Source of the DNA: Planctomycetota bacterium
GTDB lineage: Bacteria > Planctomycetota > Phycisphaerae > Phycisphaerales > SM1A02
Reading direction: 5' to 3'
Assembly: GCA_016872915.1 (NCBI GenBank)
Contig: VGYQ01000019.1
Coordinates: forward strand, 1-39,063
DNA: 39,063 nt
The notes beneath the pieces are model-generated. The model was not told where the DNA came from, made no database searches, and saw only the letters and a program-made list of their open reading frames with translations. Position numbers and translations under genes: made by a program. Shown one piece after another: positions 99-33,332 of the stretch. How positions within the stretch are numbered: position 1 is the stretch's first letter; each line of letters opens with the position of its first letter.

Positions 99-707
99 TC
101 AGAATGGCACGCTCAACATCACATACCCCATAAGACTGTTCCTCCCCGGATTCGCCTCACCGGTATTCGCGTTGGAGATGTGGTACCAGCGTGCGCCGAC
201 CATGAGTCGCAGGTCCGGTGCCACATCAAACGAGACTCCCCCACCCGCCTGCGGCGTGAAGTTGAATGATGTTCCGCCGGATGGTGTGTTCACGGTTGTC
301 GCGATTACACCGGAGCCCGCGTCCGCGTAGAGCGACCATGTGTCGTAGGCGAGGAAGTGCCAGCGGAAGAGAATGGTGCCGCCCCCGCCCCATGCGTTCG
401 CCACAGGCTGTGCGATGTAATCGCCTTCGATCTGAAAGTCGACGGAGAGGTTGTCGATGATGAAGTAGGAGGCGCTGATGCCGAACTCGACCTGCTCAGC
501 GGCTTCGAAGTCCGTCATGCCGCCGAGCAGCACTTGCCAGCGCCATGTGTCCTTCGTGCCGAACGCCGGCTTGGTCGGTGCTGCGTTCGTCGGTTCGGTC
601 GGCGCGATCTGCGCGCCTGCGTTCACGACAGGTTCGAAAGTGAACGCTGGGGTCTCTGCGTGCGCAGCGAAGCAGAGGCAGAGGGCAAACGTGGCGGAGA
701 GCCGCAT
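99..707 (-). CDS. PagL-like (acyloxyacyl hydrolase family) outer-membrane protein
   Basis: A 202-residue protein with an N-terminal signal peptide (MRLSATFALCLCFAAHA), alternating beta-strand segments and a terminal Phe, as expected for a small outer-membrane barrel. Near the C-terminus it carries YHISNANTGEANPGRN, which matches the lipid A 3-O-deacylase (PagL) His-x-Ser motif (H176 and S178 in this numbering). PagL of Pseudomonas uses a Glu 14 residues after the His; here that position is Asn, so deacylase activity is uncertain. I chose the start at 707 because it begins the signal peptide directly and has a -10-like hexamer 9 nt upstream. In-frame starts at 728 and 755 would run into the terminator hairpin. 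The family call is fairly safe; the enzymatic role is not. Confidence 0.72.
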   Translation of the reverse strand: MRLSATFALCLCFAAHAETPAFTFEPVVNAGAQIAPTEPTNAAPTKPAFGTKDTWRWQVLLGGMTDFEAAEQVEFGISASYFIIDNLSVDFQIEGDYIAQPVANAWGGGGTILFRWHFLAYDTWSLYADAGSGVIATTVNTPSGGTSFNFTPQAGGGVSFDVAPDLRLMVGARWYHISNANTGEANPGRNSLMGYVMLSVPF

Positions 708-716
708 GGTGTCGGG

Positions 717-722
717 AAGGTA
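717..722 (-). promoter_or_regulatory. -10-like element of the pagL-like gene
   Basis: TACCTT on the minus strand, 9 nt before the ATG at 707, matching the TANNNT-to-start spacing seen at ten other transcript-first genes here. It lies downstream of the terminator-like hairpin, so the gene could be transcribed separately from the RNA upstream. Confidence 0.4.
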
Positions 723-729
723 GTGCATG

Positions 730-766
730 AAAAAGCCGCTCGGTCGCTCCGACACGACCGAACGGC
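730..766 (-). terminator. Rho-independent terminator just upstream of the pagL-like gene
   Basis: On the minus strand a 12-bp stem (755-766 with 735-746, one T:G wobble, 8-nt loop) is followed at once by five T residues (734-730). It points toward the pagL-like start 23 nt further on. No protein gene on the minus strand lies before it, so it ends either a short RNA or an attenuated leader. Confidence 0.6.
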
Positions 767-818
767 GTTTCGATCAGCCTCGCTGCCGAGGCTGCAAAGA
801 AGGCAACCAATTGGGGGA
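730..818 (-). ncRNA. Candidate small RNA or attenuator leader
   Basis: A sigma70-like promoter (825-854) would start a transcript near 818 that ends at the terminator at 730, about 89 nt. It would have a C-rich unpaired 5' end, a perfect 8-bp hairpin with a 4-nt loop (787-794 with 775-782), an 8-nt linker and the terminator stem. No open reading frame explains this structure. It could be a free small RNA or a premature-termination leader of the pagL-like gene. The fold was drawn by eye and I know no family match. Confidence 0.35.
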
Positions 819-1402: not shown

Positions 1403-1981
1403 TCAGGGAAGAGGCGGCAAGACTTCCGTCGGCGGCACGGGAACCTCTGCAGACCCCTTCCCCGGCAGCGCTCCCTGCGCCTCGCCGGAGCCCATCTCCG
1501 CTGGCTTCAGCGAGGGGGCCTTTTTCACTGCCTTGCTCTCGTTCGCAGCACCACCTCGAGGAGCTGTTGCGGCGTCGGCAAGAGTCATGTCTTCCAGAAC
1601 GGCCGTTCGCATCAAGTGAGCACGGTCCAAGAGACTTGGAAAACTGTCATCTGCCGGCACGAAGGTGAAATGCCACTCCACGCGGCTCTCAAGATCGAGC
1701 GGCGCAATCTCGCTGACAAAATCTGCGCCAACAAAATCCCAGAACGGTGCAGACGCTTTGCCGGAACCCACAATGGACTCGTACCCATCGAGCTTCAAGC
1801 GCACGTCATACTCGCCGTAAAAAAGAAAGTCGACCTCACAGGGCGTTCGCCCGACCTCGCGTTCGTTCACGTACACGAGCGCTTCCGACGGCGTCGATGT
1901 GATCGCGATGGTGCGCCGGACGCATGCGGGCGCAGCCAACACCAGCAGCAAGAGTCCGAAGCTGAGAGCCGTTTGACGCAC
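1403..1981 (-). CDS. PEGA-domain lipoprotein
   Basis: A 192-residue protein starting with GTG. Residues 1-20 form a lipoprotein-type signal (FGLLLLVLAAPAC, Cys at 20). Residues about 26-66 form a PEGA domain (ITSTPSEALVYVNEREVGRT, then DVRLKLDGYE), a small beta-sandwich common in surface and periplasmic proteins. The last 50 or so residues are Pro/Ala/Lys-rich and probably disordered. It is divergent from lptB with only 43 bp between the starts, so the two promoters lie back to back. No enzymatic role is suggested. Confidence 0.75.
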   Translation of the reverse strand: MRQTALSFGLLLLVLAAPACVRRTIAITSTPSEALVYVNEREVGRTPCEVDFLFYGEYDVRLKLDGYESIVGSGKASAPFWDFVGADFVSEIAPLDLESRVEWHFTFVPADDSFPSLLDRAHLMRTAVLEDMTLADAATAPRGGAANESKAVKKAPSLKPAEMGSGEAQGALPGKGSAEVPVPPTEVLPPLP

Positions 1982-1988
1982 GGGCGGC

Positions 1989-1994
1989 AGTCTA
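1989..1994 (-). promoter_or_regulatory. -10-like element of the PEGA lipoprotein
   Basis: TAGACT on the minus strand, 7 nt before the GTG start, would give an essentially leaderless transcript. Confidence 0.45.
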
Positions 1995-2009
1995 TCGCCG
2001 CGGCGCGCT

Positions 2010-2015
2010 TACACT
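2010..2015 (+). promoter_or_regulatory. -10-like element of lptB
   Basis: TACACT, 9 nt before the lptB ATG. The same hexamer precedes the response-regulator gene at 23697. It lies 15 bp from the divergent element at 1989-1994. Confidence 0.45.
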
Positions 2016-2024
2016 CCGTGCGTC

Positions 2025-2759
2025 ATGCCACTCCTCCAAGCGCATGGGCTGGTGAAGAGCTACAACGGTCGCCGCGTCGTCGATCAGGTGTCGTTTCATG
2101 TCGATGCAGGCGAAATCGTTGGGTTGCTCGGCCGCAATGGCGCTGGAAAGACCACCAGTTTCCGCATGGCGATCGGGATGATCACCCCAGAAGCGGGATG
2201 TGTGACATTCGACGGCAAGGATGTCACGAATGAACCGATGTATCGCCACGCCGCTGCAGGCATGGGCTATCTGTCGCAGGAGCCGAGCGTGTTCCAGCGA
2301 CTCTCGGTGGAAAACAACCTGCTCGCGATCCTGGAGACGCGACCGCTGACCTATGCACAGCGGCGGAAGGCATGCGATGATTTGCTGGGACAGTTCGGGC
2401 TGCAACATAAGCGTCGCGAACAGGCGCGCACATGCTCGGGTGGTGAGCGCCGAAGGCTCGAGATCGCCCGTTCACTGATTACCAAGCCGCGGCTGATTCT
2501 TCTGGACGAACCATTCGCGGCAGTCGATCCGCACACCGTGGAAGAGTTGCAGGGCGAGGTACGGCGACTTGCGGAGCAAGGCATTTCGATCCTTGTGACC
2601 GACCACAACGTGCAGCAGACCCTGCGAATCTGCAACCGCGCATACATCATTCACGAGGGAAAAAATCTGCGCGACGGCGAACCGCGTGAAATCATCAACG
2701 ATCCGCTGGTGCGCGAGGCCTATCTGGCTTCGACCTTCCGTGGCGACGAGTTTGGCTAA
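2025..2759 (+). CDS. lptB: LptB, ATPase of the LPS export ABC transporter
   Basis: A 244-residue ABC ATPase of full LptB length. Walker A is GRNGAGKT (residues 36-43), the signature is CSGGE (137-141, with Cys instead of the usual Leu), Walker B is LILLDEP (157-163), and a switch His lies in VTDHNVQQT. The text around these (GLVKSYNGRRVVDQVSF, YLSQEPSVF, DEPFAAVDP) is characteristic of LptB rather than of LivG-type ATPases. LptB powers the LptFG permease that extracts lipopolysaccharide from the inner membrane. The matching permeases are encoded about 17 kb away (19520-22305). The gene appears to be transcribed alone; corC converges on its 3' end. Confidence 0.9.
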   Translation: MPLLQAHGLVKSYNGRRVVDQVSFHVDAGEIVGLLGRNGAGKTTSFRMAIGMITPEAGCVTFDGKDVTNEPMYRHAAAGMGYLSQEPSVFQRLSVENNLLAILETRPLTYAQRRKACDDLLGQFGLQHKRREQARTCSGGERRRLEIARSLITKPRLILLDEPFAAVDPHTVEELQGEVRRLAEQGISILVTDHNVQQTLRICNRAYIIHEGKNLRDGEPREIINDPLVREAYLASTFRGDEFG

Positions 2760-6647: not shown

Positions 6648-7937
6648 TCAGCGGTCCAGTTCCGCCGCGATGATGTTCAGCGATCCGAGCACGGCGACCG
6701 CATCGGCGAGCTGGTGCCCCTCGATCAATCGCGGGAAGAGCTGGAAGTTGTAGAAGATCGGCGGGCGCACACGAACGCGGAATGGACAGCGACCACCGTC
6801 TGCGACGATGAGGTAACCAAGTTCGCCGTTAGGTCCTTCGATTGCGCCATATGCCTCGCCCACGGGCGTCTCAAAGCCGCGGTTGTGCATGACCAGTTCG
6901 AACTGCTGGATCGTGGCTTCGATCGATCCGTACACATCGCCCTTGTCCGCCATGCGAACCTTGTTGTCGCCCACCGCATCGATCGGCCCCTTGGGGATTC
7001 GGTCAATGAGCTGGCGGATGATCGTGACCGACTGCTTCATCTCTTCGAGCCGCACGTGGTATCGCGCGAGGCAGTCGCCCGTGGTAGCCACCGGCACGGA
7101 GAATTGAACGGCGCTTGCGCCCTGCCCATCCCAGTTGTCTGCGAAGCACAGATACGGGTCGTCCTTGCGAACATCGCGTCGCACGCCCGAGGCGCGGGCA
7201 CATGGTCCGGTCGCACCCCATGCGATGGCGTCCGCTTCCGGCAGTGCACCGACGCCTTCGAGACGCTCCGTGAAGATGCGATTGCGGTTCAGCAGCGTCT
7301 CCACATCGCGCAGCGCCTTCGCCATACGCACATCAATGAACTCGCGCACCATGCGAACAAACACATCATCATCGGGCAGATCGCGCCACGCGCCGCCGAC
7401 GCGCGTCCAATCGGGATGGAAGCGCTGCCCAGAGACATACTCGAGGATGTCGTAGATGAATTCGCGCTCGTTGAAACCGTACAGGAAGCTGGTGAACGCG
7501 CCCAAGTCGAGTCCTGCCGCGCCCACGCACAACAGATGGTTCTGAATGCGCCCCAGTTCCCCCATGATCGTGCGGATCACCTTGCAACGCGGGGTCAGGT
7601 TGATCCCCATCAGACGTTCGCACGCCTCATGCCATGCGACATCGTTGCAAATCGGGGACGCATAGTCCATGCGGCTGATCGTGCAGACGTACTGGTTGTA
7701 GTCGTGATGCTCGCCGAGCTTCTCGAAGCCCGAGTGCAGGTAGCCGATGTGCGGCGTGGCTCGGGCGACGCGCTCTCCATCGAGTTCAAGCACCAGCCGA
7801 AGCGTGGTGTGCGTCGCGGGATGTTGCGGACCGAAGTTCAGCACCCAACGGTCGGGCGACTGAAAGTGATCCTTGAGATACTCGGTGCTCTCGATGTCGA
7901 GTCCGTAGCCCTCATCGGGCTGCAAGGTGAACGGCAT
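6648..7937 (-). CDS. nuoD: NADH-quinone oxidoreductase subunit D
   Basis: A 429-residue protein with NuoD landmarks: NFGPQHPATHTTLRLVLELD near the N-terminus, PHIGYLHSGFEKL, MGELGRIQNHLL, and the C-terminal AVLGSLNIIAAELDR. This 49-kDa subunit lines the quinone site of complex I. The reading frame is open 50 codons further upstream, but that part reads as random Cys/Arg-rich sequence overlapping the permease gene, and the ATG at 7937 fits the family. A TATACT element lies 9 nt before that ATG. nuoA, nuoB and nuoC are not adjacent. Confidence 0.95.
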   Translation of the reverse strand: MPFTLQPDEGYGLDIESTEYLKDHFQSPDRWVLNFGPQHPATHTTLRLVLELDGERVARATPHIGYLHSGFEKLGEHHDYNQYVCTISRMDYASPICNDVAWHEACERLMGINLTPRCKVIRTIMGELGRIQNHLLCVGAAGLDLGAFTSFLYGFNEREFIYDILEYVSGQRFHPDWTRVGGAWRDLPDDDVFVRMVREFIDVRMAKALRDVETLLNRNRIFTERLEGVGALPEADAIAWGATGPCARASGVRRDVRKDDPYLCFADNWDGQGASAVQFSVPVATTGDCLARYHVRLEEMKQSVTIIRQLIDRIPKGPIDAVGDNKVRMADKGDVYGSIEATIQQFELVMHNRGFETPVGEAYGAIEGPNGELGYLIVADGGRCPFRVRVRPPIFYNFQLFPRLIEGHQLADAVAVLGSLNIIAAELDR

Positions 7938-7946: not shown

Positions 7947-7952
7947 AGTATA
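7947..7952 (-). promoter_or_regulatory. -10-like element of the nuoD-E-x-F operon
   Basis: TATACT, five of six matches to the -10 consensus, 9 nt before the nuoD ATG and inside the 19-bp gap after the permease gene. It suggests that the nuo operon can start its own near-leaderless transcript. Confidence 0.5.
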
Positions 7953-7956: not shown

Positions 7957-9744
7957 CTACCCCCGGAACACGGCGCCCAAACGCTTCCCCAAAACGGAAC
8001 TCGCCGCAGCGAGCGTGGCGGCAAGCAGCAACATCGCCCATGTCCCCATCGCGCTCGCGATGGCTGGGCCGTCTCCGAGGCGGTCAAAGAGCGTGTAGAT
8101 CGCCTTCGTCACCGGGTAGTTCGCTTCCCGCTGAGCGAGCAGCAGCGAATCGGAAACTTCCAACATGGACAAACTGAACGCCAACAGACCCCCCGCAACC
8201 ATGTTTGCCGCCACCAACGGAATCACCACGCGCCGCAGGGTGCGCACGGGTCCCGACCCGACGCTCGCCGCAGCCTCCTCGAGATCGACCGGCGTCTGCT
8301 CAAGCCCTGCCACCGTGGAACGCACCACGTATGGCAGCCGCCGGATTGCATAGGCAATGATCAGGAATGGCACCGGGTTGGGCGTCGCACCGACAATATT
8401 GCCCATCGCCGCGAGCGGTGCGCTCGAAAACCACTCCCACCACGCAGCGGGCAGGACCGCCGACAGCCCACTGAGCCACTCGGGCGCCCGCCCCGCAAAC
8501 GGCCACGCAAGGCTCATCGAAACGAAGCCGAACGCCATGACGAGTCCAGGCACGGCGATCGGCAACATGATGAGCGCATCGAGCAGCCACCGCAGCGGCA
8601 ACTTTGTGCGAACCAAAATGCGAGCCGCCGCCACGCCAAGAATGAGATCGATCACCACCGCGCAGCCGGCAAGGAAGAGCGAGTTGCGCACAGCGCCTGC
8701 CGCGAGGGGATGCTGAAGCGCCGCGGAAAAGTTTTCAAGCGTCCACGCCTGCGGCAGCACCGTGCCGTACCAACTCCCTGGAACGCTGAGCGCACTCAGC
8801 ACGACACCAATATGTGGCAGACATGCGATGCTGCACACACCACCCATGAGCACCCATGCGCCCAATGTTCCGCGCACTCCGAGCACGCGCTCCGTCCGAC
8901 GCACGGACGCCTTGGTCGATGCGCCACCACGCGCCCGTCCGAGCGTGGCGCGCCCCACGAGATAGATCGCAGTCGCCACCGCGAACATGAGCAGCGTGAG
9001 CGCATACGGCTGGCGCGATGTCTCGATCTCCTTCAGTCCATCGAAGATCTGCACGCTCGTCACGGAACGGAAGCCGAACATCAGTGGTGTACCGAGTTCC
9101 GTGAAACTCCAGACAAAAACGATCGTCGCGCCCGCGAAGAAACCCGGGCGAAGCATGGGCACGGTGATCCGTCGAAACCGCCGCCACGGTCCAGCGCCAC
9201 AGTTGCGCGCAGCCTCCTCCATGGCAGGGTCGATGTTCGCCAGCGCCGCCAGCACATTCAAGAACAGGATCGGATAGAGATGCAGCGCCTCGAGCAGGAT
9301 GATGATGCCGACTCCACCTCCGGTGAGCAGATCCAATGGTGGTCCGGTGCGTCCGAGGTGTCGCAGCAATGCGTTCAGACTGCCCTCGTGACCAAGGATC
9401 GCCTCCATGCCGATCGCACCGACAAATGGCGGCAGGATCAGCGGCGCGAGAAGCAGTGCGTTCAGCAGTCCCTTGCCGCGGAACGCACACCGCGCGCTCA
9501 CGAGCGCCACCGGGAGCGCGATCAACGCAGCGAGCAGTGTGGTACATGCGGCGATGAAAAGTGCGTTGCGAAGCCCCGCCACCAGCTGCGGATCGCGAAG
9601 CACATCCCTCACATGAAAGAGCGTCCAACCACTGTCATCATGGAGTGCGCCGGAGACCGCGTGCCCGATCGGCACGATCAGGAAGCAGGTCAGGACTGCA
9701 AACAGGACGCCCATGATGAGCGCATCGGTTCGCCTCGGTCGCAT
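7957..9744 (-). CDS. Fused two-domain ABC permease, iron(III)/FbpB-like
   Basis: A 595-residue protein with about twelve hydrophobic segments and two binding-protein-dependent permease modules. Each half ends in an EAA loop that contacts the ATPase: EEAARNCGAGPWRRFRRITV in the first, EEAAASVGSGPVRTLRRVVI in the second. This fused layout and the phrases around it resemble ferric iron permeases (FbpB/SfuB type), though thiamine or putrescine systems share the fold. Neither a binding protein nor an ATPase gene is adjacent, so partners must be elsewhere. The start at 9744 removes 68 upstream codons that overlap the protease gene and is preceded by a TACTCT element. Confidence 0.82.
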   Translation of the reverse strand: MRPRRTDALIMGVLFAVLTCFLIVPIGHAVSGALHDDSGWTLFHVRDVLRDPQLVAGLRNALFIAACTTLLAALIALPVALVSARCAFRGKGLLNALLLAPLILPPFVGAIGMEAILGHEGSLNALLRHLGRTGPPLDLLTGGGVGIIILLEALHLYPILFLNVLAALANIDPAMEEAARNCGAGPWRRFRRITVPMLRPGFFAGATIVFVWSFTELGTPLMFGFRSVTSVQIFDGLKEIETSRQPYALTLLMFAVATAIYLVGRATLGRARGGASTKASVRRTERVLGVRGTLGAWVLMGGVCSIACLPHIGVVLSALSVPGSWYGTVLPQAWTLENFSAALQHPLAAGAVRNSLFLAGCAVVIDLILGVAAARILVRTKLPLRWLLDALIMLPIAVPGLVMAFGFVSMSLAWPFAGRAPEWLSGLSAVLPAAWWEWFSSAPLAAMGNIVGATPNPVPFLIIAYAIRRLPYVVRSTVAGLEQTPVDLEEAAASVGSGPVRTLRRVVIPLVAANMVAGGLLAFSLSMLEVSDSLLLAQREANYPVTKAIYTLFDRLGDGPAIASAMGTWAMLLLAATLAAASSVLGKRLGAVFRG

Positions 9745-9753: not shown

Positions 9754-9759
9754 AGAGTA
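9754..9759 (-). promoter_or_regulatory. -10-like element of the ABC permease
   Basis: TACTCT on the minus strand, 9 nt before the ATG at 9744, in the 73-bp gap after the protease gene. Confidence 0.4.
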
Positions 9760-9817: not shown

Positions 9818-11413
9818 TCAGCCCCAACCCGACAGCAGAACCGTGAGATCCTCGCCGTTGGTCGTGCCGTCGCGGTTGATATCCCCAAGGCCGGGCAACC
9901 CCCATCCGCCCAGAAGAATCGTGAGATCCAATCCCCCGACCGCACCATCCTGATTCAGATCTGCCGCACGTGGCGACACATACCACGCCAGCGCGAAGGG
10001 CGTGCCCGCCGTGCTCGAACCACCACGGGTCATCTGAATGATGTAATCGCCTGGCGCAAGGTCGCGCACATACAGGTGTTCGATGTTGTCGACCGCAGAT
10101 CGGCTCGCCACATTGCCCGATCCGTAGAAGGCCGTGCCCGCCTCGCCCTCGAGCGGCACCGCGATGCCGTCCGTGCCGATCCGCAGCAGCGCGAGGCTGA
10201 GGTCCGCCACGAGCGGAACGGCAGTCGAGTTTGTTGCCACGCGGTTCCACGCCGCGATCACCGACAGCTCGGGGGCTGACTGCGAGATCGTGAAACGCCA
10301 GAATCGAGTTGCGTTCACGGCAGGAAGGTTTTCGAAGTCCCAGCCGATGATCGAGCCTGCCACCGCGGCGGCTGCGCTCGTCGCGCCCGCAAACTCACCG
10401 CCCGTGAGAATTTGATGACTGCGGTCGATATTGACCAAGTCTGCACCCGACACTGGATCGAGTGGCTTCACCGTCGAGCCGCGCTGCGTGCCGGAGGCAA
10501 CCGGATTGTTCGTCCATCCGGCGCGGTGCGTCGCGCCCGCAAGCAGACACGCCTTGATGACCGTGGTTTCGTCCGCATTCGGATTGCTTGCGAGCGTGCT
10601 GAGTGCCGTGTCGTACAGAAGGACCGCTGCGGCGCCAACAACCGGCGCTGCCCAACTGGTGGCATTTCCAGGCGCAACGATTTGCGGCATCATCCGTCCC
10701 GGACCATCCGCCCCCACGGGCACATCACCACGCGAATGCTCGCCATCCATACGACCGACCGCCAGTCCGTTGTAACCCATCGCCATCAGTGGATAGGTCT
10801 GGCTCGTCGCACCGTTGTTCATACCAACGCAGTACAGCGTGTCGTCGCGGTTCATCTGGAAGTCAGCTCTGCGCAGGATTTCGAGATCACCCGCCGTGGG
10901 TGTGGTTCCCGAGAGGCCGCCGATCCAGCTGTGGTTGTAGACCTTCATCAGCGACGACGGCGGGGTCACGGGTGCGACCGACGATCCCTGTCCATAGCGA
11001 AGGTGCGATGAGATGAAACTATTCACCTCATACAGGTAGATCGTGCCAACTCCGCGCGCGATGCTGTTGTTGCCGTAGTACACGCCCGCCACAACTGTTG
11101 CGTGCGAGCTGACGGCGGGCGTTCCACTCTGTGCGGAGAATGTCTTGCCAGAAAACTCGGGCAATGTCTGGTTGGGCCCGTACGGAACAGGCGTGCCGCT
11201 TGCCTCCGGCGCCTCACACTGCGCAGCACGAACTCCCGCACCGATCGGCACAGCCGCGCCGAGACGGGCGACGAGTTCCTCATAGCCAATGTCATCGGCG
11301 AGGACGCTCGCTGAGCACAAAGTCGATGCAACAGCAGCCGTCCCGAGGACTGCCACTTGGCGCACTTTGGAGCACGCAAACTGACATCGAAGCCTCCGCA
11401 AGCGCTTGTGCAT
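9818..11413 (-). CDS. Secreted subtilase-like (S8) protein with dockerin-like C-terminal tag
   Basis: A 531-residue exported protein whose signal peptide ends near SASVLA. The subtilase pattern is recognisable: SSHATVVAGVYYG fits the catalytic His block, VGMNNGATS fits the oxyanion Asn block, and GNATSWAAPVVGAAAVL fits the catalytic Ser block. The Asp block aligns to IGAGVRAAQCEAPE, where Glu takes the place of Asp. The middle and C-terminal parts contain beta-rich text like a P-domain or pre-peptidase domain (DIEH-type strands, DLAPGDYIIQM). The last 50 residues are two calcium-loop repeats (DLNQDGAVGGLDLTILLGGW and DINRDGTTNGEDLTVLLSGW), as in two other proteins of this window. Activity is likely but unproven. 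Confidence 0.78.
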   Translation of the reverse strand: MHKRLRRLRCQFACSKVRQVAVLGTAAVASTLCSASVLADDIGYEELVARLGAAVPIGAGVRAAQCEAPEASGTPVPYGPNQTLPEFSGKTFSAQSGTPAVSSHATVVAGVYYGNNSIARGVGTIYLYEVNSFISSHLRYGQGSSVAPVTPPSSLMKVYNHSWIGGLSGTTPTAGDLEILRRADFQMNRDDTLYCVGMNNGATSQTYPLMAMGYNGLAVGRMDGEHSRGDVPVGADGPGRMMPQIVAPGNATSWAAPVVGAAAVLLYDTALSTLASNPNADETTVIKACLLAGATHRAGWTNNPVASGTQRGSTVKPLDPVSGADLVNIDRSHQILTGGEFAGATSAAAAVAGSIIGWDFENLPAVNATRFWRFTISQSAPELSVIAAWNRVATNSTAVPLVADLSLALLRIGTDGIAVPLEGEAGTAFYGSGNVASRSAVDNIEHLYVRDLAPGDYIIQMTRGGSSTAGTPFALAWYVSPRAADLNQDGAVGGLDLTILLGGWGLPGLGDINRDGTTNGEDLTVLLSGWG

Positions 11414-11419: not shown

Positions 11420-11429
11420 ACCGTAGCAT
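11420..11429. promoter_or_regulatory. Overlapping divergent -10 elements (protease / dehydrogenase)
   Basis: ACCGTAGCAT reads as TACGGT on the minus strand, 6 nt before the protease ATG at 11413, and as TAGCAT on the plus strand, 19 nt before the dehydrogenase ATG at 11449. The two share bases 11424-11425, so transcription in the two directions would compete. The divergent starts are only 35 bp apart. Confidence 0.4.
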
Positions 11430-13857: not shown

Positions 13858-13863
13858 TACTTT
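13858..13863 (+). promoter_or_regulatory. -10-like element of the ECF sigma factor gene
   Basis: TACTTT, 10 nt before the ATG at 13874. ECF-type autoregulatory promoters have a different -10, so this may be a housekeeping start. Confidence 0.3.
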
Positions 13864-13873: not shown

Positions 13874-14506
13874 ATGGCCGACCAAGGCATGGATGCCGCA
13901 TCGGATGAATCGCTCCTGACGCGCCACCGCGACGGGGACCCGGATGCATTCCGAACACTCGTTGAACGCTACCGCAGCGACCTGCACGGATTCCTCGCAC
14001 GCTTCCTTGGTTCGGGCGCCGCAGCCGACGATGTCTTTCAGGACACGATGCTGCAGGTCCACCTCTCGGCTGACTCTTTCGATGCAGATCGGCGCTTCAA
14101 GCCCTGGCTCTACACGATCGCATCGAACAAGGCGCGCGACTTTCATCGGCGCGCGAAGCGTCGACGTGCCGTGAGCTTGGATAAGCCGATGAGCGATGAC
14201 GATGGCTTCACCATGGGTGAACTCGTCGAGGCGCAGGACGAAGCGCCCGATGCGTTTGCAACGGCGCGCGATGAGAGCGCTTTGGTGAAGCAAGTGCTCG
14301 ATGGCATGCCGGCGCACCACCGCGAAGTGATCCTCCTTGGATATTTTCAGCGTCTCAGCTACCAGCAGGTGGCAGATGCACTGGGTGTTCCGCTCGGCAC
14401 GATCAAGAGCCGCATGCATGCCGCCGTGGCGATGTTTTCCACGCAGTGGCGGCGCCGCACGGGCGGTGGGCCAGGACACACGAACGATGTGAACAAGGGT
14501 GAGTGA
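13874..14506 (+). CDS. ECF-type RNA polymerase sigma factor
   Basis: A 210-residue sigma factor with region 2 at about residues 20-100 (DAFRTLVERYRSDLHGFL, DDVFQDTMLQVH, FKPWLYTIASNKARD) and region 4 at about 140-190 (MPAHHREVILLGYFQRLSY, VPLGTIKSRMHAAVA). There is no region 1 or 3. The tail is Gly/Asn-rich. The frame stays open upstream to 13595, but MADQGMDAASDESLLTRHRD is a normal ECF start and has a -10-like hexamer 10 nt before it. A membrane protein that may be its regulator follows 69 nt downstream. Planctomycetes carry many such sigma factors; the target genes are not visible. Confidence 0.88.
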   Translation: MADQGMDAASDESLLTRHRDGDPDAFRTLVERYRSDLHGFLARFLGSGAAADDVFQDTMLQVHLSADSFDADRRFKPWLYTIASNKARDFHRRAKRRRAVSLDKPMSDDDGFTMGELVEAQDEAPDAFATARDESALVKQVLDGMPAHHREVILLGYFQRLSYQQVADALGVPLGTIKSRMHAAVAMFSTQWRRRTGGGPGHTNDVNKGE

Positions 14507-22323: not shown

Positions 22324-23697
22324 TCAGCGCAGCCCGTACTCCTTCAGTTTGCGGTAGAGGGTGCGTTCACCGATTCCAAGCATCTGTGCTGCAAGCTCCC
22401 TGTTGTTCTCGGCAAGCGCCAGCGTCTGACGGATCGTTTCCTTTTCCAGCCTCTCGAGGTTGCGCCCCGCGAGACTGCCACCGCCCTCTGGCGCGCTCCC
22501 GTCGCTGCATACCTCTGCAGGAACGTCCTGCGCATCGATCACGGCCCCTGACTGCCCAACCAGCATGCGGTGAACGGCGTTCACCAGCTCGCGCACATTG
22601 CCCGGCCAGTGGTACGAGACCAGGCGCAGCATGGCCGACTCGCTGATGGATGGGATCGGACGCTCCAGTTCACGTGCGAACTTGCCCACCGCATGGCGCA
22701 CCAGCAGCGGAATGTCCTCGCGTCGCTCGCGCAGCGGCGGAATCGAGATTTCCACGCCGCGCAGGCGGTAGAAAAGGTCCTCTCGGAACTGCCCTTGCTT
22801 GGACGCCGCCTTCAGGTCACGGTTGGTGGCGCTGACGAAGCGGACATCCACCCGCTTTGCATCGTTGGCCCCAAGCCGCACGATCTCCCCCTTTTCAAGA
22901 ACGCGCAGAAGCTTCGGCTGCATCGACAGCGGCATGTCGCCAATCTCATCCAGAAAGACCGTCCCGCGGTCGCCGTACTCGAAAACGCCCTCTCGGTCTC
23001 GGTCGGCCCCAGTGAACGCACCCCGCACGTGACCGAAGAGCTGGTCCTCAAGCAGGCTCTCTGCTTGCCCGGCCGCGTTGAAAGGGACAAACCGCCGCTC
23101 TCGGCGCTTCGAGTGAAGGTGAATGGCGTGGGCGACCAGTTCCTTGCCCGTTCCGCTCTCACCCGTGATGAGGACCGGGATGTTCGTCGGCGCGACTTGG
23201 CGGATCGATTGAATCACCTGGCGGATGGCGGCAGAATCGCCGATGATCCCCTCAAAGCCATAGGCAGCATCGACTTGCCCGCGGAGCGCTACGTTCTGAT
23301 GGCGCAGGAGGACCGACTCCGCGGCCCGCTGCACCACATGACGAAGCAGCACCACATCGAGGGGCTTCTCGATGAAGTCATACGCGCCGCCCCGGAGTGC
23401 CTCCTTTGCCGTTGCCACATCTCCGTGGGCAGTCACCATGATGGCCGCCGCCCCCTGCTGCAGCGACCCGACCATTTCCAGCACTTCCAGCCCCGATCGT
23501 TCGGTCTCCATCACAAGGTCTGTGACGATGACATCGAAGTTGCCATGCCGCAGCTCGTCTTCCGCCGCCTTTCGGCTGTGCACCACGGTGCAGACATGGC
23601 CTGGCTTGCGCAGCGCCTCCGCCATGATTTCGGCGTGTTCCTTCTCGTCGTCCACGATCAGGACCTGCGCGCGGACAGCCTCTGATCCTCCTGCCAT
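22324..23697 (-). CDS. NtrC-family sigma54-dependent response regulator
   Basis: A 457-residue protein with a receiver domain (phosphorylatable Asp60, Lys111), an AAA+ domain (Walker A GESGTGKE at 179-186, sigma54-contact loop GAFTGA at 226-231, FLDEIGDMP) and a Fis-type helix-turn-helix at the end (ELAAQMLGIGERTLYRKLKE). It activates sigma54 promoters when phosphorylated. No histidine kinase gene is adjacent. The same frame is open far upstream, but that part is antisense to murC; the ATG at 23697 starts a normal receiver domain and has TACACT 6 nt before it. Confidence 0.93.
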   Translation of the reverse strand: MAGGSEAVRAQVLIVDDEKEHAEIMAEALRKPGHVCTVVHSRKAAEDELRHGNFDVIVTDLVMETERSGLEVLEMVGSLQQGAAAIMVTAHGDVATAKEALRGGAYDFIEKPLDVVLLRHVVQRAAESVLLRHQNVALRGQVDAAYGFEGIIGDSAAIRQVIQSIRQVAPTNIPVLITGESGTGKELVAHAIHLHSKRRERRFVPFNAAGQAESLLEDQLFGHVRGAFTGADRDREGVFEYGDRGTVFLDEIGDMPLSMQPKLLRVLEKGEIVRLGANDAKRVDVRFVSATNRDLKAASKQGQFREDLFYRLRGVEISIPPLRERREDIPLLVRHAVGKFARELERPIPSISESAMLRLVSYHWPGNVRELVNAVHRMLVGQSGAVIDAQDVPAEVCSDGSAPEGGGSLAGRNLERLEKETIRQTLALAENNRELAAQMLGIGERTLYRKLKEYGLR

Positions 23698-23703: not shown

Positions 23704-23709
23704 AGTGTA
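23704..23709 (-). promoter_or_regulatory. -10-like element of the response regulator-lptFG operon
   Basis: TACACT on the minus strand, 6 nt before the ATG at 23697, would place the first transcribed base at or next to the start codon. Confidence 0.45.
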
Positions 23710-23771: not shown

Positions 23772-23777
23772 TATTCT
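23772..23777 (+). promoter_or_regulatory. -10-like element of the murC operon
   Basis: TATTCT, 7 nt before the murC ATG; no Shine-Dalgarno site is present in front of this gene. Confidence 0.45.
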
Positions 23778-23784: not shown

Positions 23785-25287
23785 ATGAACACGCGCAAGG
23801 ATGCGGCGGTTTTTGGCGGTCGTCGCGTGCACTTCATTGGCATCGGCGGCTGCGGCACCAGCGGACTTGCGCGCATGATGCGCTCCCGCGGTGCATTCAT
23901 CACCGGCAGCGACGAGGAGGCGAGCGACGTCACGCGAGCGCTTTGCGTCGACGGCATCGAGGTCGAGGTGGGCCCCCCCGCTGCATCGGTCCCACCTGGG
24001 ACAGACCTTGTTGTGTTCTCTGCAGCCGTTCAAGAGAGCAACCCGCAACTCGCCGCTGCACGCAGCGCAGGGATCGAGTGCCTCAACTACGCGCAGGCGC
24101 TCGGCGTCGCGCAGTCTGGACGCACCGCAGTCTCCATCGCAGGAACGCACGGCAAGAGCACCACGACCGCTCTGCTGAGCCACTTGCTGATCGAGGCAGG
24201 ACTTGATCCGTCGGTGATCGTCGGCGCGCACTGCCCACAGTTTGGTGGCGGCACCAGAACAGGATCGGAGCGGATTCCAGCCGGCGCACTCGCGGGCGAG
24301 CCCGGGATCTTCGTCGCGGAAGCATGCGAGTTCAACCGTTCGTTCCACTCGCACCGGCCCACGCTCGCGCTGATCAACAACGTCGAAGAGGATCATCTTG
24401 ACTGCTACGGTTCGCTCGATGAAATCGTGAAGTCTTTCCGTGCGTTCGCGGGACTTCTTCCCGAGGCCGATTGCGGCGGGAAGTTGCTCATCGCGCATGA
24501 GGGGGCGCACCGTCGTGCCGTGGCGAGCGGGCTTGCGTGCGCTGTCCAGACGTTCGGATGGTCGCCCTCGGCCGACTACCGAGTGGAGTTCATTCCCGGC
24601 ACGAATGAGGGCGCGCTGTACCAAGCCGATGCATGCCTGGTGTCGTGGCGGGGGCACTTGATCGGCGAACACAACGCATTGAACGCCGCCGCTGCGGCGA
24701 TTCTTGCTTCTTGGCTCGGCGCTTCGTGGCGGGATATTCAACGCGGCCTGGAATCCTTCGCGGGCATTGACCGCCGCATGCAGAAGATCGGCGACTGCGA
24801 ATCGCCAAACGGCGCGCGTTTCACGGTCTTCGACGATTACGGCCACCATCCGACGGAGTGCGAGCGCACCCTCGCAGCGCTCCGCAGTGCGCATGATCCA
24901 CGGCGACTGATCTGCGTTTTCCAACCACATCAGCACAGCCGCACGCGCTTTCTTCTGGAACAGTTTGCGCAGAGCTTCGGGCGCGCGGATCTTGTCATCG
25001 TGCCGCCGATCTATTTCGTGCGCGACAGCGAAATCGAACGCACGCGCGTCTGCAGCGAGGATTTGGTGCAGCGACTCGTGGCGCGTGGCACGGAGGCGAT
25101 GGCGATCGAGGACTTTGGCGCGATCACGGATCGCATCACAGCCGATGCGCGCGATGGTGATCTCGTGGTTGTCATGGGAGCCGGGCCCGTCTGGAAAATC
25201 GCGCACGAATTGGTGCGCCGATACGGCACAGCCTCACGCGCTGCCGCGACCTGCCCGCCGCGTGCCGCAGCCAGCCCGACCGAGTGA
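23785..25287 (+). CDS. murC: UDP-N-acetylmuramate--L-alanine ligase
   Basis: A 500-residue Mur ligase. The N-terminal Rossmann part (HFIGIGGCGTSGLARMM) binds UDP-MurNAc, SIAGTHGKSTTTALL is the ATP P-loop, NNVEEDHLDCYGS is the central domain motif, and FDDYGHHPTE plus FQPHQHSRT mark the C-terminal domain. MurC adds the first amino acid of the peptidoglycan stem peptide in the cytoplasm. It is the first gene of a murC-murB-ddl-ftsQ-like run with gaps of 4 and 3 bp and then overlaps. Confidence 0.96.
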   Translation: MNTRKDAAVFGGRRVHFIGIGGCGTSGLARMMRSRGAFITGSDEEASDVTRALCVDGIEVEVGPPAASVPPGTDLVVFSAAVQESNPQLAAARSAGIECLNYAQALGVAQSGRTAVSIAGTHGKSTTTALLSHLLIEAGLDPSVIVGAHCPQFGGGTRTGSERIPAGALAGEPGIFVAEACEFNRSFHSHRPTLALINNVEEDHLDCYGSLDEIVKSFRAFAGLLPEADCGGKLLIAHEGAHRRAVASGLACAVQTFGWSPSADYRVEFIPGTNEGALYQADACLVSWRGHLIGEHNALNAAAAAILASWLGASWRDIQRGLESFAGIDRRMQKIGDCESPNGARFTVFDDYGHHPTECERTLAALRSAHDPRRLICVFQPHQHSRTRFLLEQFAQSFGRADLVIVPPIYFVRDSEIERTRVCSEDLVQRLVARGTEAMAIEDFGAITDRITADARDGDLVVVMGAGPVWKIAHELVRRYGTASRAAATCPPRAAASPTE

Positions 25288-28118: not shown

Positions 28119-28797
28119 ACTACCGCGCGGTTTAGTCGTCGCGGTGGGCTGCTGGTTCGCCTTCGCCTGTGCCGCAGCCTTTGCGCCGACTCTTCCGCTC
28201 CATCTTGCACCCTCCACGCTGACGCCCGGCATCTCCCAAACGCTGGTGCTCTGCACCATGGCGCTGTGGGTGGGTTGGCCCCTGCTGCGCCTGAGCGCAC
28301 CTCCAACCCGCGCGCCGTCGACGCAGGCACTCCTGGATGCAGTCACGCTGGCGTTCCTGATCCAACTGCCCTTGTGGCCGCTGCGACTGGGAACACCCTG
28401 GCCCGTGCAACGCACACTGCTGATCGACCTGCATGTACTGGCAGGGCTTGCATCGGTGACGGGCCTGGTGGCGGTCGGAACCGCCGTTTCGTCAGGTTGG
28501 GTGCGCGCCGCCGCGATGGCGGGTTGCATGGTTGTTGCCACGGGTGTGCACCTGCCGCTCGGAGCGATGGGCGGAGCGCCGCACGCCGCCTCCGCCATGC
28601 TGCCAGGCGGCATTCCCGCGCTGCTCGACCGCATGCGATCGAACATGACGATCCCAACGGTGGACGATTGGAGCGCCGCCCTTCTGCTCTGGATCGTGTC
28701 CGTCGTCACGGCGGTCGGTGGACTGCTGCTCGCCTCGCTGCTTGCACGCCTGACAGATGGCGCGCGCGCTGTTGCGAGCACGCGCAGAGTGGGATAG
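28102..28797 (+). CDS. Unknown polytopic membrane protein
   Basis: A 231-residue protein with six likely transmembrane helices (for example GLVVAVGCWFAFACAAAFAP, LLIDLHVLAGLASVTGLVAV and LLLWIVSVVTAVGGLLLASL). I do not recognise the family. It overlaps the ftsQ-like gene by 17 bp and so probably belongs to the same operon. It occupies the place of ftsA in the classical cluster order but has nothing in common with FtsA. The frame is open upstream to 27865, but that part is antisense-free overlap with the ftsQ-like gene and is unlikely to be used. Confidence 0.7.
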   Translation: MSEAAELPRGLVVAVGCWFAFACAAAFAPTLPLHLAPSTLTPGISQTLVLCTMALWVGWPLLRLSAPPTRAPSTQALLDAVTLAFLIQLPLWPLRLGTPWPVQRTLLIDLHVLAGLASVTGLVAVGTAVSSGWVRAAAMAGCMVVATGVHLPLGAMGGAPHAASAMLPGGIPALLDRMRSNMTIPTVDDWSAALLLWIVSVVTAVGGLLLASLLARLTDGARAVASTRRVG

Positions 28798-28800
28798 TGT
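28772..28800 (+). promoter_or_regulatory. greA promoter overlapping the upstream stop codon
   Basis: TTGCGA (28772-28777) and TAGTGT (28795-28800) are 17 bp apart, and the -10 ends 9 nt before the greA ATG. The first three bases of the -10 are the TAG stop codon of the upstream gene. Confidence 0.45.
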
Positions 28801-28809: not shown

Positions 28810-29274
28810 ATGGAATTCGTCACCAAGGCAGACAAGGAAAAGCTGGAGCGGCAACTCGCCGACTACCGCGCGCTTGACAAGGCGCTGACCGAGCGCATCG
28901 CCGAAGCGCGCGGACATGGTGACCTTCGTGAAAACTCCGACTATCACGCTGCGCGCGAAGACAAGTCGATGAACAACCTCCGAATCCGCGAACTCGAGGC
29001 GCGAATTGCCGCGTGCCAAGTGGTTCAAGAAGGCGAGATGCCCGCCGACATGGTGTTTCTCGGCGCTGTTGTGCAGCTCCGCGATGAGGCCAGCGGCAAG
29101 GTGGAGACGTACAAGATTGTGAGCACGATGAGTGAAACGCCCACGGAGTACCGCGAGGTGACAACCACGAGCCCGATGGGCACGGCACTGATGAAAGCCC
29201 GCATCGGCGAGACTGTTCGCGTCAATCTGCCCAAGGGTGAACGCCGTCTGACCATCGTGAACATCGTGCTGTGA
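28810..29274 (+). CDS. greA: Transcription elongation factor GreA
   Basis: A 154-residue protein with the N-terminal coiled coil that enters the RNA polymerase channel. Its tip, HGDLRENSDYHAAREDKS, carries the conserved Asp and Glu needed for transcript cleavage. The C-terminal FKBP-like domain includes TSPMGTALMKARIGETVRVN. GreA rescues backtracked polymerase. The gene overlaps the cls start by GTGA. Confidence 0.95.
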   Translation: MEFVTKADKEKLERQLADYRALDKALTERIAEARGHGDLRENSDYHAAREDKSMNNLRIRELEARIAACQVVQEGEMPADMVFLGAVVQLRDEASGKVETYKIVSTMSETPTEYREVTTTSPMGTALMKARIGETVRVNLPKGERRLTIVNIVL

Positions 29275-30779: not shown

Positions 30780-32474
30780 CGGTGGCGCGATCACCGTTCG
30801 GGCTCCGCGCACCACCGACTGCTGCGAGATACGACCATCTGGCCATGTCACGCGTACCTGCGGCAGTGCCGACCCCGCCGCCTTTGGGCCGAGTCCGAAG
30901 TGCACTTCGGCGGGTACGTTGGACTGAAAGGGACCGCCACCCACCAGCCACCGAACCTGTCGATTGGAGCCATCCAGCAGTTCGATCCGCGCACCGACAC
31001 CGCTTCGGTTGCCACGCGAGGCGGGATCATGCAGCGCAATGATCGCCCAGTCGTCTTTCACGTCGTGTGTGTTTCGAAGAATGCGCACCGGCTGATTGAG
31101 ACCGGCGATGACAGCATCGAGATCACCGTCGCGGTCGAGATCCGCCATCACGGCGCTTCGATCACGATGAGGTCTCTGCAGCCAGAGCTGGTCGGGTGAA
31201 AGCGTTCGGAACCGAGCGCCCTCACGCTCCATGACAAGCAGAGGCTGTGCATACTCGCTGTTGAGGGTCGACTTGGTGGCCTGCGGATACACATGACCGT
31301 TGACGACGAAGAGGTCCTCATCGGCGTCGTGATCGAGATCGACAAACGCAGCCGCCCACCCACAGAGCGTCCGCGATGGCGAACCGACCCCGAATCGTGC
31401 GGTGGCATCATCGAAGAATCCGTCCGCACGGCTGACCATCAGTGTGTTCGTGTCATCGCTGAAATTGGTGGTGAGCAGATCAGCGCGCCCATCGCCATTC
31501 ACGTCACCCACAGCGATTCCCATGCTGGCCTGCTCAAGCCCCTCGATATTGGTCGCCACGCCGACGCGGGTGCCAATGTCCTCGAAGCGCATGTCGCCCA
31601 AGTTGTGCAGCAGGAAGTTCGGGCGCGAGTCGTTGGCAACGAAGATGTCCACCCGTCCATCGCCCGTGAGATCGACCACAGCTGCATTCAATCCATAACT
31701 GGCGGCGGGCGTTCGAATGCCGCTTGTATCGCTGCGGTCCGCGAAGGTGCCATTGCCGAGGTTCTCAAAGAGCATGTCCGAAAGTGGCGTGATGCCCCGA
31801 GGACCATTGATCACTTGCAATCCGCGCAAGTTCGCCGGCGGCACTGGCTTCTTGGGGTCGTACTCGACGTATCGCGTCACGTAGAGATCGAGATCGCCAT
31901 CACCGTCGAAATCGGCCAGCGCAGCCGATGTGCTCCATCCCGTATCGCCACCAAGTCCCGCTGTGCGTGTGACGTCGGCGAATCGACCCTCTCCGAGATT
32001 GCGCCAGAGTCGATTTTGCCCGAAGCAGGCCACAAAGATGTCATCTCGATTGTCGCCGTCATAATCACCGACGGCGGTGCCAAAACTCCACGCACGATGA
32101 TCGATGCCCGACTGTGCGGTGACATCACGCCAGCGCATACTGCCGAGATTTTCGTACAGCCGTGCACCCGGTCCACTCGTGGGCGAACCGAGCGTTGCAC
32201 CGTTGGGGAAGAAGAGATCCCAGTCGCCGTCCGCATCGAAATCGATGAGCGAAACCCCGCCGCCTTTCACCTCCAAGATTTGTGTGCTCGGATCCGAGCC
32301 AGAACATGTGACAAAGTCGATGCCGCTGCCAGCGGTGACATCCTCCATTTGGATCGCGCTCGGCACATCGGCACCCGGCGTCTGTTGCTGTGGCAACGCG
32401 ATGTGCACCTGCGCGAGACTCAGAAGAACACCTGCCGAATATTCAGGGCGCAACAGCCAAAAACTGCGCATCAC
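30765..32474 (-). CDS. FG-GAP/VCBS repeat protein with ASPIC/UnbV domain (CRTAC1-like)
   Basis: A 569-residue exported protein. After a weak signal segment it has repeated calcium-loop units of the FG-GAP type, such as DFDADGDWDLFFPNG, DYDGDNRDDIFVACF, DFDGDGDLDLYVTRY and DVNGDGRADLLTTNF, which form a beta-propeller. The end (LLDGSNRQVRWL, PAEVHFGLGPK, VRVTWPDGRISQQ) is an ASPIC/UnbV domain. Its GTG start overlaps the stop of the TPR lipoprotein gene; an ATG lies one codon later. Pairing with a TPR protein is common for this family in Planctomycetes. The ligand is unknown. Confidence 0.87.
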   Translation of the reverse strand: MMRSFWLLRPEYSAGVLLSLAQVHIALPQQQTPGADVPSAIQMEDVTAGSGIDFVTCSGSDPSTQILEVKGGGVSLIDFDADGDWDLFFPNGATLGSPTSGPGARLYENLGSMRWRDVTAQSGIDHRAWSFGTAVGDYDGDNRDDIFVACFGQNRLWRNLGEGRFADVTRTAGLGGDTGWSTSAALADFDGDGDLDLYVTRYVEYDPKKPVPPANLRGLQVINGPRGITPLSDMLFENLGNGTFADRSDTSGIRTPAASYGLNAAVVDLTGDGRVDIFVANDSRPNFLLHNLGDMRFEDIGTRVGVATNIEGLEQASMGIAVGDVNGDGRADLLTTNFSDDTNTLMVSRADGFFDDATARFGVGSPSRTLCGWAAAFVDLDHDADEDLFVVNGHVYPQATKSTLNSEYAQPLLVMEREGARFRTLSPDQLWLQRPHRDRSAVMADLDRDGDLDAVIAGLNQPVRILRNTHDVKDDWAIIALHDPASRGNRSGVGARIELLDGSNRQVRWLVGGGPFQSNVPAEVHFGLGPKAAGSALPQVRVTWPDGRISQQSVVRGARTVIAPPSQQR

Positions 32475-33319
32475 TCCGCCTCCCCTCGTCCGCGCGCATC
32501 GACCCGCACTTGGACAGCGGACTGTTTCACGCGCGCAGCCTCCGCAGCATCGGCGCGCCCAAGACGATCGAGCGCACGCGCCAACTTGCCCCAGACTTCC
32601 ACATGATCTGAGTACAACTCCAAGGACTCTTCGAACAGTGAAACGGCAGGCTCGATCCGATCCGCACGGAACTCGATGTCGCCAAGCCTTGCGAGAATCT
32701 TTGCACGGTCGCGCACACGCCGCGGCGATGATCCCACGAGTTCGAGTGCGCGCTCCAGCGCTTGCTGCGCATCGCCGACTCGATCCTCGTCGAGGGCGAT
32801 CACTGCGAGACCGTAGTAAGAATCATCTGCAGTTGGGACGGCGGCAACATGAGACTGAAATGCCCGCTTCGCTTCATCGAGTTCGCCCAGTTGATAGTTC
32901 GCCCATCCCATGAAATGTTCGACATGCGTTCGCCCCGTGAAGGCCTGTCCCGATGCAAGGCTCGCCTGCAACAGCGGAAGCGCGCGCGCTGCGCGCTGCG
33001 TCTTCAAGTAGACAACGCCGAGCAGGAACTCTGCCTGTGCGGAGTCGGGTCGCTCTTGCAAGATCGCGGTCAACACAATCTCGGCATCCAGAAAACTGCC
33101 TGCGGCGACCAACTGCGACGCCACCGCCAGGTTCGGATGCATCTGCTGCTGTGCGATTGCGGAAACAGGCGGGTTCGGGTCGGGCTTGGCGACCTGTCCC
33201 GCTGGTTCCATCACCGCATGACTCTCGTCTTTCTTCGTGGTTTCTTGCGTTCTTGTCGGCTGGCACCCACACAGCAAAAGCATCGCAAGAACCACGGCGC
33301 CATGTCTTATTTGTCCCAT
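32471..33319 (-). CDS. TPR-repeat lipoprotein
   Basis: A 282-residue lipoprotein: MGQIRHGAVVLAMLLLCGC gives a lipidated Cys at 19, followed by a charged linker and several tetratricopeptide repeats (for example ASQLVAAGSFLDAEIVLTAI, FLLGVVYLKTQRAARALPLL, VWGKLARALDRLGRADAAEA). I prefer the start at 33319 because it begins the signal directly and has a -10-like hexamer 7 nt before it; an ATG at 33340 would add seven residues. TPR proteins act as scaffolds. The 4-bp overlap with the ASPIC gene suggests that the two products work together at the outer face of the membrane. Confidence 0.83.
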   Translation of the reverse strand: MGQIRHGAVVLAMLLLCGCQPTRTQETTKKDESHAVMEPAGQVAKPDPNPPVSAIAQQQMHPNLAVASQLVAAGSFLDAEIVLTAILQERPDSAQAEFLLGVVYLKTQRAARALPLLQASLASGQAFTGRTHVEHFMGWANYQLGELDEAKRAFQSHVAAVPTADDSYYGLAVIALDEDRVGDAQQALERALELVGSSPRRVRDRAKILARLGDIEFRADRIEPAVSLFEESLELYSDHVEVWGKLARALDRLGRADAAEAARVKQSAVQVRVDARGRGEAE

Positions 33320-33326
33320 GCAACCG

Positions 33327-33332
33327 AGGGTA
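33327..33332 (-). promoter_or_regulatory. -10-like element of the TPR lipoprotein-ASPIC operon
   Basis: TACCCT on the minus strand, 7 nt before the ATG at 33319. Confidence 0.4.

What the first reader, a model, noticed from the sequence alone, without database searches (positions are those of the whole stretch)
707..33332. Recurrent TANNNT hexamer 6-10 nt before start codons: widespread leaderless transcription
Eleven genes that look like the first of their transcripts have TANNNT ending 6-10 nt before the start codon: TACCTT (717-722), TAGACT (1989-1994), TACACT (2010-2015), TATACT (7947-7952), TACTCT (9754-9759), TACGGT (11420-11425), TACTTT (13858-13863), TACACT (23704-23709), TATTCT (23772-23777), TAGTGT (28795-28800) and TACCCT (33327-33332). 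If A and T are each near 20%, a hit in this five-position range is expected at about 4% of starts. Genes inside operons (nuoE, rplT) instead have GGAG-type sites. A -10 at this distance would start RNA at or 1-4 nt before the start codon. Leaderless promoters of this form are known in Deinococcus and Actinobacteria; here they would imply two initiation modes, leaderless for first genes and Shine-Dalgarno for internal genes.
Basis: partly seen in the sequence, partly recalled or inferred. Interest (0 to 1): 0.7.

Follow-up and report, generated by a model that had tools for sequence, protein, structure and literature searches.

The report
Leaderless promoters in a planctomycete
In this planctomycete bacterium many genes appear to start their messenger RNA exactly at the protein start, and a few pairs of oppositely facing genes seem to share a single seven-base promoter box.

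Summary
All 11 TANNNT boxes are where stated, 6-10 nt before an in-frame ATG or GTG. The box lies at 6-10 nt in 90 of 280 divergently placed genes against 2.8% expected, with a sharp edge at 6 nt; before out-of-frame ATGs it is rare (23 of 10,497). The same box stands 4-25 nt before 18 of 24 tRNA genes, so it behaves as a promoter -10 element, not a translation signal. Its outer bases, not its middle or exact spacing, are kept in the genus. A mixture model gives about 39% leaderless, 41% Shine-Dalgarno genes, graded rather than strict by operon position. Leaderless transcription is known; this planctomycete (probably Phycisphaerales) is a new member of a known kind. Unexpected extra: five divergent pairs share one symmetric TANNNTA box, start codons 17-19 bp apart; at pdxJ/phoU it is kept in the 6 of 6 loci fetched. 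No -35 consensus was found and no RNA ends were mapped.

The parts
717..722 (-). -10-like box TACCTT, 9 nt before ATG at 707 (PagL-like outer membrane protein gene 99-707)
   Evidence: PagL Pfam hit; both my start callers preferred 728
1989..1994 (-). -10-like box TAGACT, 7 nt before GTG at 1981 (PEGA-domain protein gene 1403-1981)
   Evidence: leaderless posterior 0.98; a TANNNT followed at 6-11 nt by a start codon on this side in 16 of 16 loci, own included (frame of the relatives' starts not checked)
2010..2015 (+). -10-like box TACACT, 9 nt before ATG at 2025 (ABC transporter ATPase gene 2025-2759, lptB-like by recall)
   Evidence: posterior 0.97; TACACT in 16 of 16 loci, own included
7947..7952 (-). 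-10-like box TATACT, 9 nt before ATG at 7937; 19 nt after the upstream same-strand gene
   Evidence: posterior 0.98; TATACT kept in the 85%-identical orthologue of G003
9754..9759 (-). -10-like box TACTCT, 9 nt before ATG at 9744 (transport permease gene 7957-9744)
   Evidence: posterior 0.88; Pfam
11420..11425 (-). -10-like box TACGGT, 6 nt before ATG at 11413 (dockerin hit below its cut-off)
   Evidence: my callers preferred 11356, so this start is unconfirmed; Pfam
13858..13863 (+). -10-like box TACTTT, 10 nt before ATG at 13874 (sigma-70 family ECF-type gene)
   Evidence: posterior 0.59; Pfam
23704..23709 (-). -10-like box TACACT, 6 nt before ATG at 23697 (NtrC-type response regulator gene 22324-23697)
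   Evidence: posterior 0.99; TACACT in 13 of 13 loci read, own included, spacers 6, 8, 10 or 11
23772..23777 (+). -10-like box TATTCT, 7 nt before ATG at 23785 (Mur ligase gene 23785-25287, murE-like by recall)
   Evidence: posterior 0.97; TANNNT in 17 of 18 loci with a 5' end, own included, with six different middles
28795..28800 (+). -10-like box TAGTGT, 9 nt before ATG at 28810 (greA); its TAG is also the stop codon of the upstream gene
   Evidence: posterior 0.72; a TANNNT box in 13 of the 13 nearest relatives (of 36 loci) but 9 to 44 nt from greA
33327..33332 (-). -10-like box TACCCT, 7 nt before ATG at 33319
   Evidence: my callers preferred 33211, so this start is unconfirmed
1982..2024 (.). 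43-bp divergent intergenic region holding two back-to-back boxes 15 bp apart

Best explanation
TANNNT is the -10 element of ordinary housekeeping-type promoters in this planctomycete. At a large share of genes it is placed so that RNA polymerase starts at the first base of the start codon (spacer 6) or within about 4 nt of it, giving leaderless mRNAs that ribosomes read from a 5'-terminal AUG or GUG. Other genes, above all those inside operons, use a GGAGG-type Shine-Dalgarno site. Shown: the box, its position, its enrichment, its presence before tRNA genes, its conservation, and the intact anti-SD. Inferred: the exact RNA 5' ends, the sigma factor, and the ribosomal mechanism (70S or initiator-tRNA-loaded ribosomes; recalled from the leaderless literature).
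For: Position: in 280 divergent genes the box counts at spacers 0-12 are 1,0,0,0,2,4,36,21,14,10,9,3,3; 90 of 280 at 6-10 against 2.8%. A start codon cannot precede the RNA start, which would explain the edge at 6. Controls: four shifted windows 6, 10, 7 and 9 of 264, opposite strand 9 of 264, out-of-frame ATGs 23 of 10,497, in-frame internal ATGs 30 of 6,977; TANNNT ranks first of 64 XYNNNZ shapes in all four gene classes. Pipeline controls, divergent genes: E. coli 3 of 40 (4.4 expected), D. deserti plasmid 6 of 34 (0.6 expected). SD in 7 of 85 boxed against 32 of 179 unboxed divergent genes. tRNA genes: box at 4-25 nt in 18 of 24, at 54-75 nt in 0 of 24. Orthologues with matching N-termini in same-genus G003 (48 of 99 reciprocal pairs; spacers 6-11): where own has a box 9 of 15 also have it, where not 1 of 33 (Fisher p 2.6e-5). 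Four gene families in the genus keep TA and T while, at murE and the PEGA gene, the middle changes.
Against: No RNA data. No clear -35: exact TTGAC at 16-19 nt from the box in 6 of 220 (0-3 in non-overlapping bins), a small excess only; TTGACA with one mismatch 8 of 220 against 0-7 elsewhere. Spacers 9-11 would place +1 further from the box than is usual (recalled), so leaders of a few nt are possible there; 6 of 13 ntrC loci have spacer 11. Only 1 of 6 random starts of the motif search found TANNNT by itself, though it had the best likelihood of the six and the seeded run the best of all. Same-strand genes 60 nt or more downstream, some of which must be first genes, are boxed in only 16 of 201. 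tRNAs of the relatives are few and mixed: same genus 3 of 6, but G053 0 of 4 and G038 0 of 1. One same-genus murE locus (L183) has TATTCC.
Confidence: 0.9

Rival explanations
1. TANNNT is an RNA-level translation signal (an A/T-rich ribosome or S1 site) on leadered mRNAs, not a promoter.
For: It sits at a fixed distance from start codons; PMC5397173 (passages) leaves leaderless and S1 signals unresolved for its one planctomycete.
Against: The same box precedes 18 of 24 tRNA genes, which are not translated; the mean leaderless posterior falls from 0.55 in 288 divergent genes to 0.17 in 148 genes that overlap the one before.
Confidence: 0.04
2. The boxes are real -10 elements but many transcripts carry leaders of about 1-10 nt, so translation is not strictly leaderless. 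(Overlaps with the best explanation at the short end.)
For: Spacer spread 6-11.
Against: Spacers 6 and 7 hold 57% of the model weight, which places +1 on or next to the start codon; the base at box+7 is not purine-rich when the spacer is 7-10 (27-42%), so initiation there is not favoured. The pyrimidine before ATG is general to all gene classes and does not discriminate.
Confidence: 0.12
3. The pattern is chance or an artefact of choosing starts.
For: At three of the 11 window sites my callers prefer another start.
Against: In some searches starts were chosen without upstream signal; decoy ATGs, shifted windows and opposite strand and two phylum members (G031 0 of 32, G037 1 of 49) show no excess.
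Confidence: 0.01

Closest known systems
Leaderless genes with a TA-like signal about 10 bp upstream (Actinobacteria, Deinococcus-Thermus; Zheng et al. 2011, PMC3160421, passages seen)
   Same: TANNNT core with an uninformative middle in a GC-rich genome, fixed distance to the start, SD used beside it; the 39% model weight here is like the 39.4% average given there for Deinococcus-Thermus (different methods).
   Different: Lineage: the word 'planctomycet' has 0 occurrences in that text; no -35 consensus was seen here.
GeneMarkS-2 class of bacteria with leaderless transcription in up to 40% of transcripts (Lomsadze 2018, as told in PMC9581028, passages seen; original not held)
   Same: Mixed leaderless and SD genome, at the upper end of that range.
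   Different: Whether that survey already holds members of this order could not be checked.
Bidirectional promoters with a shared symmetric -10 element and start sites most often 18 bp apart (E. coli, Salmonella; PMC12825309 and PMC10268837, passages seen; Warman 2021 not held)
   Same: TANNNTA reads as TANNNT on both strands; the first bases of the two start codons are 18 bp apart in 3 of the 5 pairs.
   Different: Both products are protein-coding and apparently leaderless, so the whole intergenic region is 17-19 bp; 'leaderless' has 0 occurrences in either paper.

Membership tests
Bacterial leaderless promoter (TA-like signal class) | TANNNT core at a fixed distance of about 10 nt before the start codon, far above chance | tested here: met
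   90 of 280 divergent genes against 2.8%
Bacterial leaderless promoter (TA-like signal class) | Favours genes that begin transcription units | tested here: met
   mean posterior 0.55 in divergent, 0.17 in overlapping genes; graded, and only 0.30 in same-strand genes 60 nt or more downstream
Bacterial leaderless promoter (TA-like signal class) | Shine-Dalgarno site not used by these genes | tested here: met
   SD in 7 of 85 boxed divergent genes against 32 of 179 unboxed
Bacterial leaderless promoter (TA-like signal class) | Box is a transcription signal | tested here: met
   18 of 24 tRNA genes carry it at 4-25 nt, 0 of 24 at 54-75 nt
Bacterial leaderless promoter (TA-like signal class) | RNA 5' end at the start codon | not testable with these tools
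   needs RNA 5'-end mapping
Bacterial leaderless promoter (TA-like signal class) | -35 element (not strictly required) | tested here: inconclusive
   exact TTGAC at 16-19 nt in 6 of 220; no consensus
Bidirectional promoter with shared -10 | Self-symmetric -10 element between divergent units | tested here: met
   5 of 128 divergent pairs; TA...TA ranks first of 16 symmetric shapes at candidate start pairs 15-23 nt apart (5 of 106; next 2 of 106)
Bidirectional promoter with shared -10 | Divergent start sites 18 bp apart | tested here: inconclusive
   start codons have that spacing in 3 of 5 pairs; RNA starts not mapped

The most novel reading that the evidence does not exclude
Double-leaderless bidirectional promoters: one 7-bp symmetric box (TANNNTA), with start codons 17-19 bp apart on opposite strands, serves as the -10 for two protein-coding genes whose mRNAs both begin at their start codons. 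The whole intergenic region is then the promoter, and RNA polymerase must choose one gene per binding event. pdxJ/phoU is the best case: the arrangement is kept in 6 of 6 loci fetched (own and five relatives, of 18 other genus genomes with pdxJ; 17 bp in five, 19 bp in one) although the box changed from TATCCTA to TATGCTA.
Probability: 0.65. Interest if true: 0.7.

Novelty: new member of a known kind. Interest (0 to 1): 0.5.

Why it matters
It adds a planctomycete genus, known here from environmental genomes, to the bacteria that rely heavily on leaderless mRNAs, and shows the trait strong in this genus, variable in its order and absent in two of four other planctomycetes sampled. That makes gain and loss of leaderless initiation testable within one phylum. 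Gene callers that look only for Shine-Dalgarno sites may misplace starts here (224 of 914 starts moved when the two signals were modelled). The shared-box pairs would be an extreme of gene packing.

Tried and rejected
A -35 consensus was sought and not found. Purine preference at box+7 was tested to separate true leaderless from short leaders; no enrichment, and the -1 pyrimidine proved general. TANNNT further upstream of SD-bearing first genes gave no sharp peak. Ribosomal protein bS21 was looked for as a possible correlate and is present in 21 of 21 genomes, own included, so it explains nothing. Five of six random starts of the motif search did not find TANNNT. The greA comparison was kept only as weak evidence because the box overlaps the upstream stop codon (TAG/TAA), so only its last three bases are free of coding constraint; the 23 more distant loci were left out of that count and do not show the same box at the same place. 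ntrC was read in 13 loci only, those whose ntrC match began at residue 1. My gene caller is home-made; genes with low score, at stretch edges or without 60-80 nt upstream were dropped (893 of 987 kept, 848 of these in the four classes; 914 genes, 843 in the four classes).
Full report
What was checked. The window is contig C19 of a 2.09-Mb, 108-contig genome, 90.6% complete. Its GreA is 94-95% identical to those of three named MAGs titled Phycisphaerae, Planctomycetia and Planctomycetota, so the organism is a planctomycete, probably Phycisphaerales; titles of relatives such as Baikal-deep and Erken suggest lakes (inference). The 16S gene ends with an intact anti-Shine-Dalgarno sequence. Gene names such as murE, lptB and ntrC are recalled labels laid on Pfam hits.

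Genome-wide test. I wrote a gene caller that chooses starts from coding signal and start codon only, and ran it on the window plus 60 stretches (1,236,663 bases, 59% of the genome). One setting gave 85 of 264 divergent genes with TANNNT at 6-10 nt, another 90 of 280, against a background of 2.8% (binomial p 5e-68). For all classes it is 172 of 893 against 1.7%. The histogram rises from 4 genes at spacer 5 to 36 at spacer 6. Four shifted windows (6-10 of 264), the opposite strand (9 of 264), in-frame decoys (30 of 6,977) and out-of-frame decoys (23 of 10,497) show no excess, and TANNNT is the most enriched of 64 shapes in each of four gene classes. E. coli run the same way gives 3 of 40 divergent genes with 4.4 expected, a D. 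deserti plasmid 6 of 34 with 0.6 expected. Same-strand genes 60 nt or more downstream of the last gene are boxed in only 16 of 201, fewer than divergent genes.

Two modes. A mixture model started from TANNNT and GGAGGN converged to a TANNNT motif (T 0.87, A 0.76, last T 0.99; spacers 6 and 7 commonest) and a GGAGGA-like motif, with weights 0.39, 0.41 and 0.21 for leaderless, SD and neither; of six random starts one found TANNNT and the seeded run had the best likelihood. By position the mean leaderless/SD posteriors are 0.55/0.27 in divergent genes (288), 0.30/0.48 in same-strand genes 60 nt or more downstream (200), 0.41/0.38 in between (100) and 0.25/0.53 within 20 nt (255); genes that overlap the one before have 0.17/0.61 (148). 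ATG is the start in 78 of 85 boxed divergent genes against 120 of 179 unboxed.

Why it is a promoter. tRNA genes have no start codon, yet 18 of 24 in the own stretches carry TANNNT 4-25 nt upstream and 0 of 24 at 54-75 nt; in relatives the numbers are small and mixed (G003 3 of 6, G018 2 of 5, G016 1 of 1, G037 1 of 2, G031 3 of 4, G053 0 of 4, G038 0 of 1). Among 48 orthologue pairs with matching N-termini (of 99 reciprocal pairs) between this genome and same-genus G003, 9 of 15 boxes are shared and 1 of 33 unboxed genes has a box in G003. In the genus, own locus included, murE keeps the box in 17 of 18 loci with six different middles, ntrC in 13 of 13, lptB in 16 of 16 (15 of them before GTG), and a box with a following start codon is found on the PEGA side in 16 of 16. 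No -35 consensus was found.

Phylogenetic spread. Divergent genes with the box in 178-200 kb each: same genus G003 14 of 49; same order G016 14 of 53, G018 5 of 38, G015 5 of 34; same phylum G053 6 of 40, G038 4 of 47, G037 1 of 49, G031 0 of 32. These are eight of the 56 other genomes given handles, chosen for long contigs. The trait is strong in this genus and one order member, weaker in others, absent in two.

Shared boxes. Of 144 divergent pairs with refined starts, 50 have both genes leaderless (posterior above 0.5); 26 of these, one overlapping pair included, have start codons less than 60 bp apart. Five pairs share one symmetric TANNNTA: pdxJ/phoU, xseA/recG, a bacterial globin with a protein without Pfam match, an M14 carboxypeptidase with a ChaN-type protein, and a GFO/IDH oxidoreductase with an FAD oxidoreductase. 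The pattern with flanking starts occurs 7 times in the 1.24 Mb and 5 of the 7 are at in-frame candidate starts of divergent pairs; TA...TA is first of 16 symmetric shapes there although it is the rarest overall. Caution: the signal-free caller chose both starts in only one of the five (L058); in the other four the model, which favours boxes, moved one start by 9-96 nt. PdxJ as read starts two residues before its Pfam domain, and the arrangement is kept in 6 of 6 loci fetched, own included (phoU recognised in relatives by eye from its N-terminus). One further such pair is in G003 and none in seven other relatives, the D. deserti plasmid or E. coli. In E. coli and Salmonella, start sites at shared -10 elements are most often 18 bp apart (PMC12825309, PMC10268837, passages), which matches the start-codon spacing of three pairs.

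Literature. Searches pairing leaderless, Shine-Dalgarno or start-site terms with planctomycete terms (listings, capped in most: 11 of 11, 20 of 328, 20 of 59, 10 of 537, 20 of 21 and 12 of 215 papers listed) showed no paper on leaderless transcription in Phycisphaerales. PMC5397173 (passages) groups one planctomycete genome with those showing a leaderless and/or S1 signal, PMC9581028 (passages) reports 21.6% of bacterial species as predicted users, and PMC10783764 (passages) lists Phycisphaerae only for its anti-SD type. A search for leaderless with bidirectional promoter or divergent genes (15 of 96 listed) showed no bacterial paper on the combination. Most subscription papers are not in the library, so absence there is weak.

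Noticed in passing
L060:6535-6553, L058:8153-8171, L093:15461-15479, L064:17057-17076, L067:17993-18013: Five divergent gene pairs share one symmetric TANNNTA box, start codons 17-19 bp apart; pdxJ/phoU (L060) is kept in 6 of 6 loci fetched, own included.
   Followed up: yes
window 1981-2025: Back-to-back leaderless-type boxes 15 bp apart in a 43-bp intergenic region; boxes on both sides in 16 of 16 genus loci, own included.
   Followed up: yes
window 28795-28800 and L022-L034 upstream of position 1001: The greA box overlaps the upstream stop codon and its distance to greA varies from 9 to 44 nt among the 13 nearest relatives, with an SD-like motif in L028-L030 and L034: a possible switch from leaderless to leadered.
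   Followed up: partly
G000:C4:41724-41786: The primary-sigma domain (PF00140) gives only one weak hit in this genome, while 12 of 12 same-genus genomes have a strong one, so the main sigma gene is probably missing from the assembly.
   Followed up: no
L025, L027-L029, L034 record titles: Several relatives are deposited as 'Singulisphaera sp. GP187'; the contig of one (L034, 473192 bases) has the same length as contig C1 of G003, placed in the window's genus, so the label may be wrong.
   Followed up: no
own divergent intergenic regions: Divergent start codons less than 60 bp apart in 28 of 128 pairs here and 6 of 23 in G003, against 0 of 23 in G037, 0 of 14 in G031, 1 of 20 in E. coli and 0 of 15 in the D. 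deserti plasmid (signal-free starts).
   Followed up: partly
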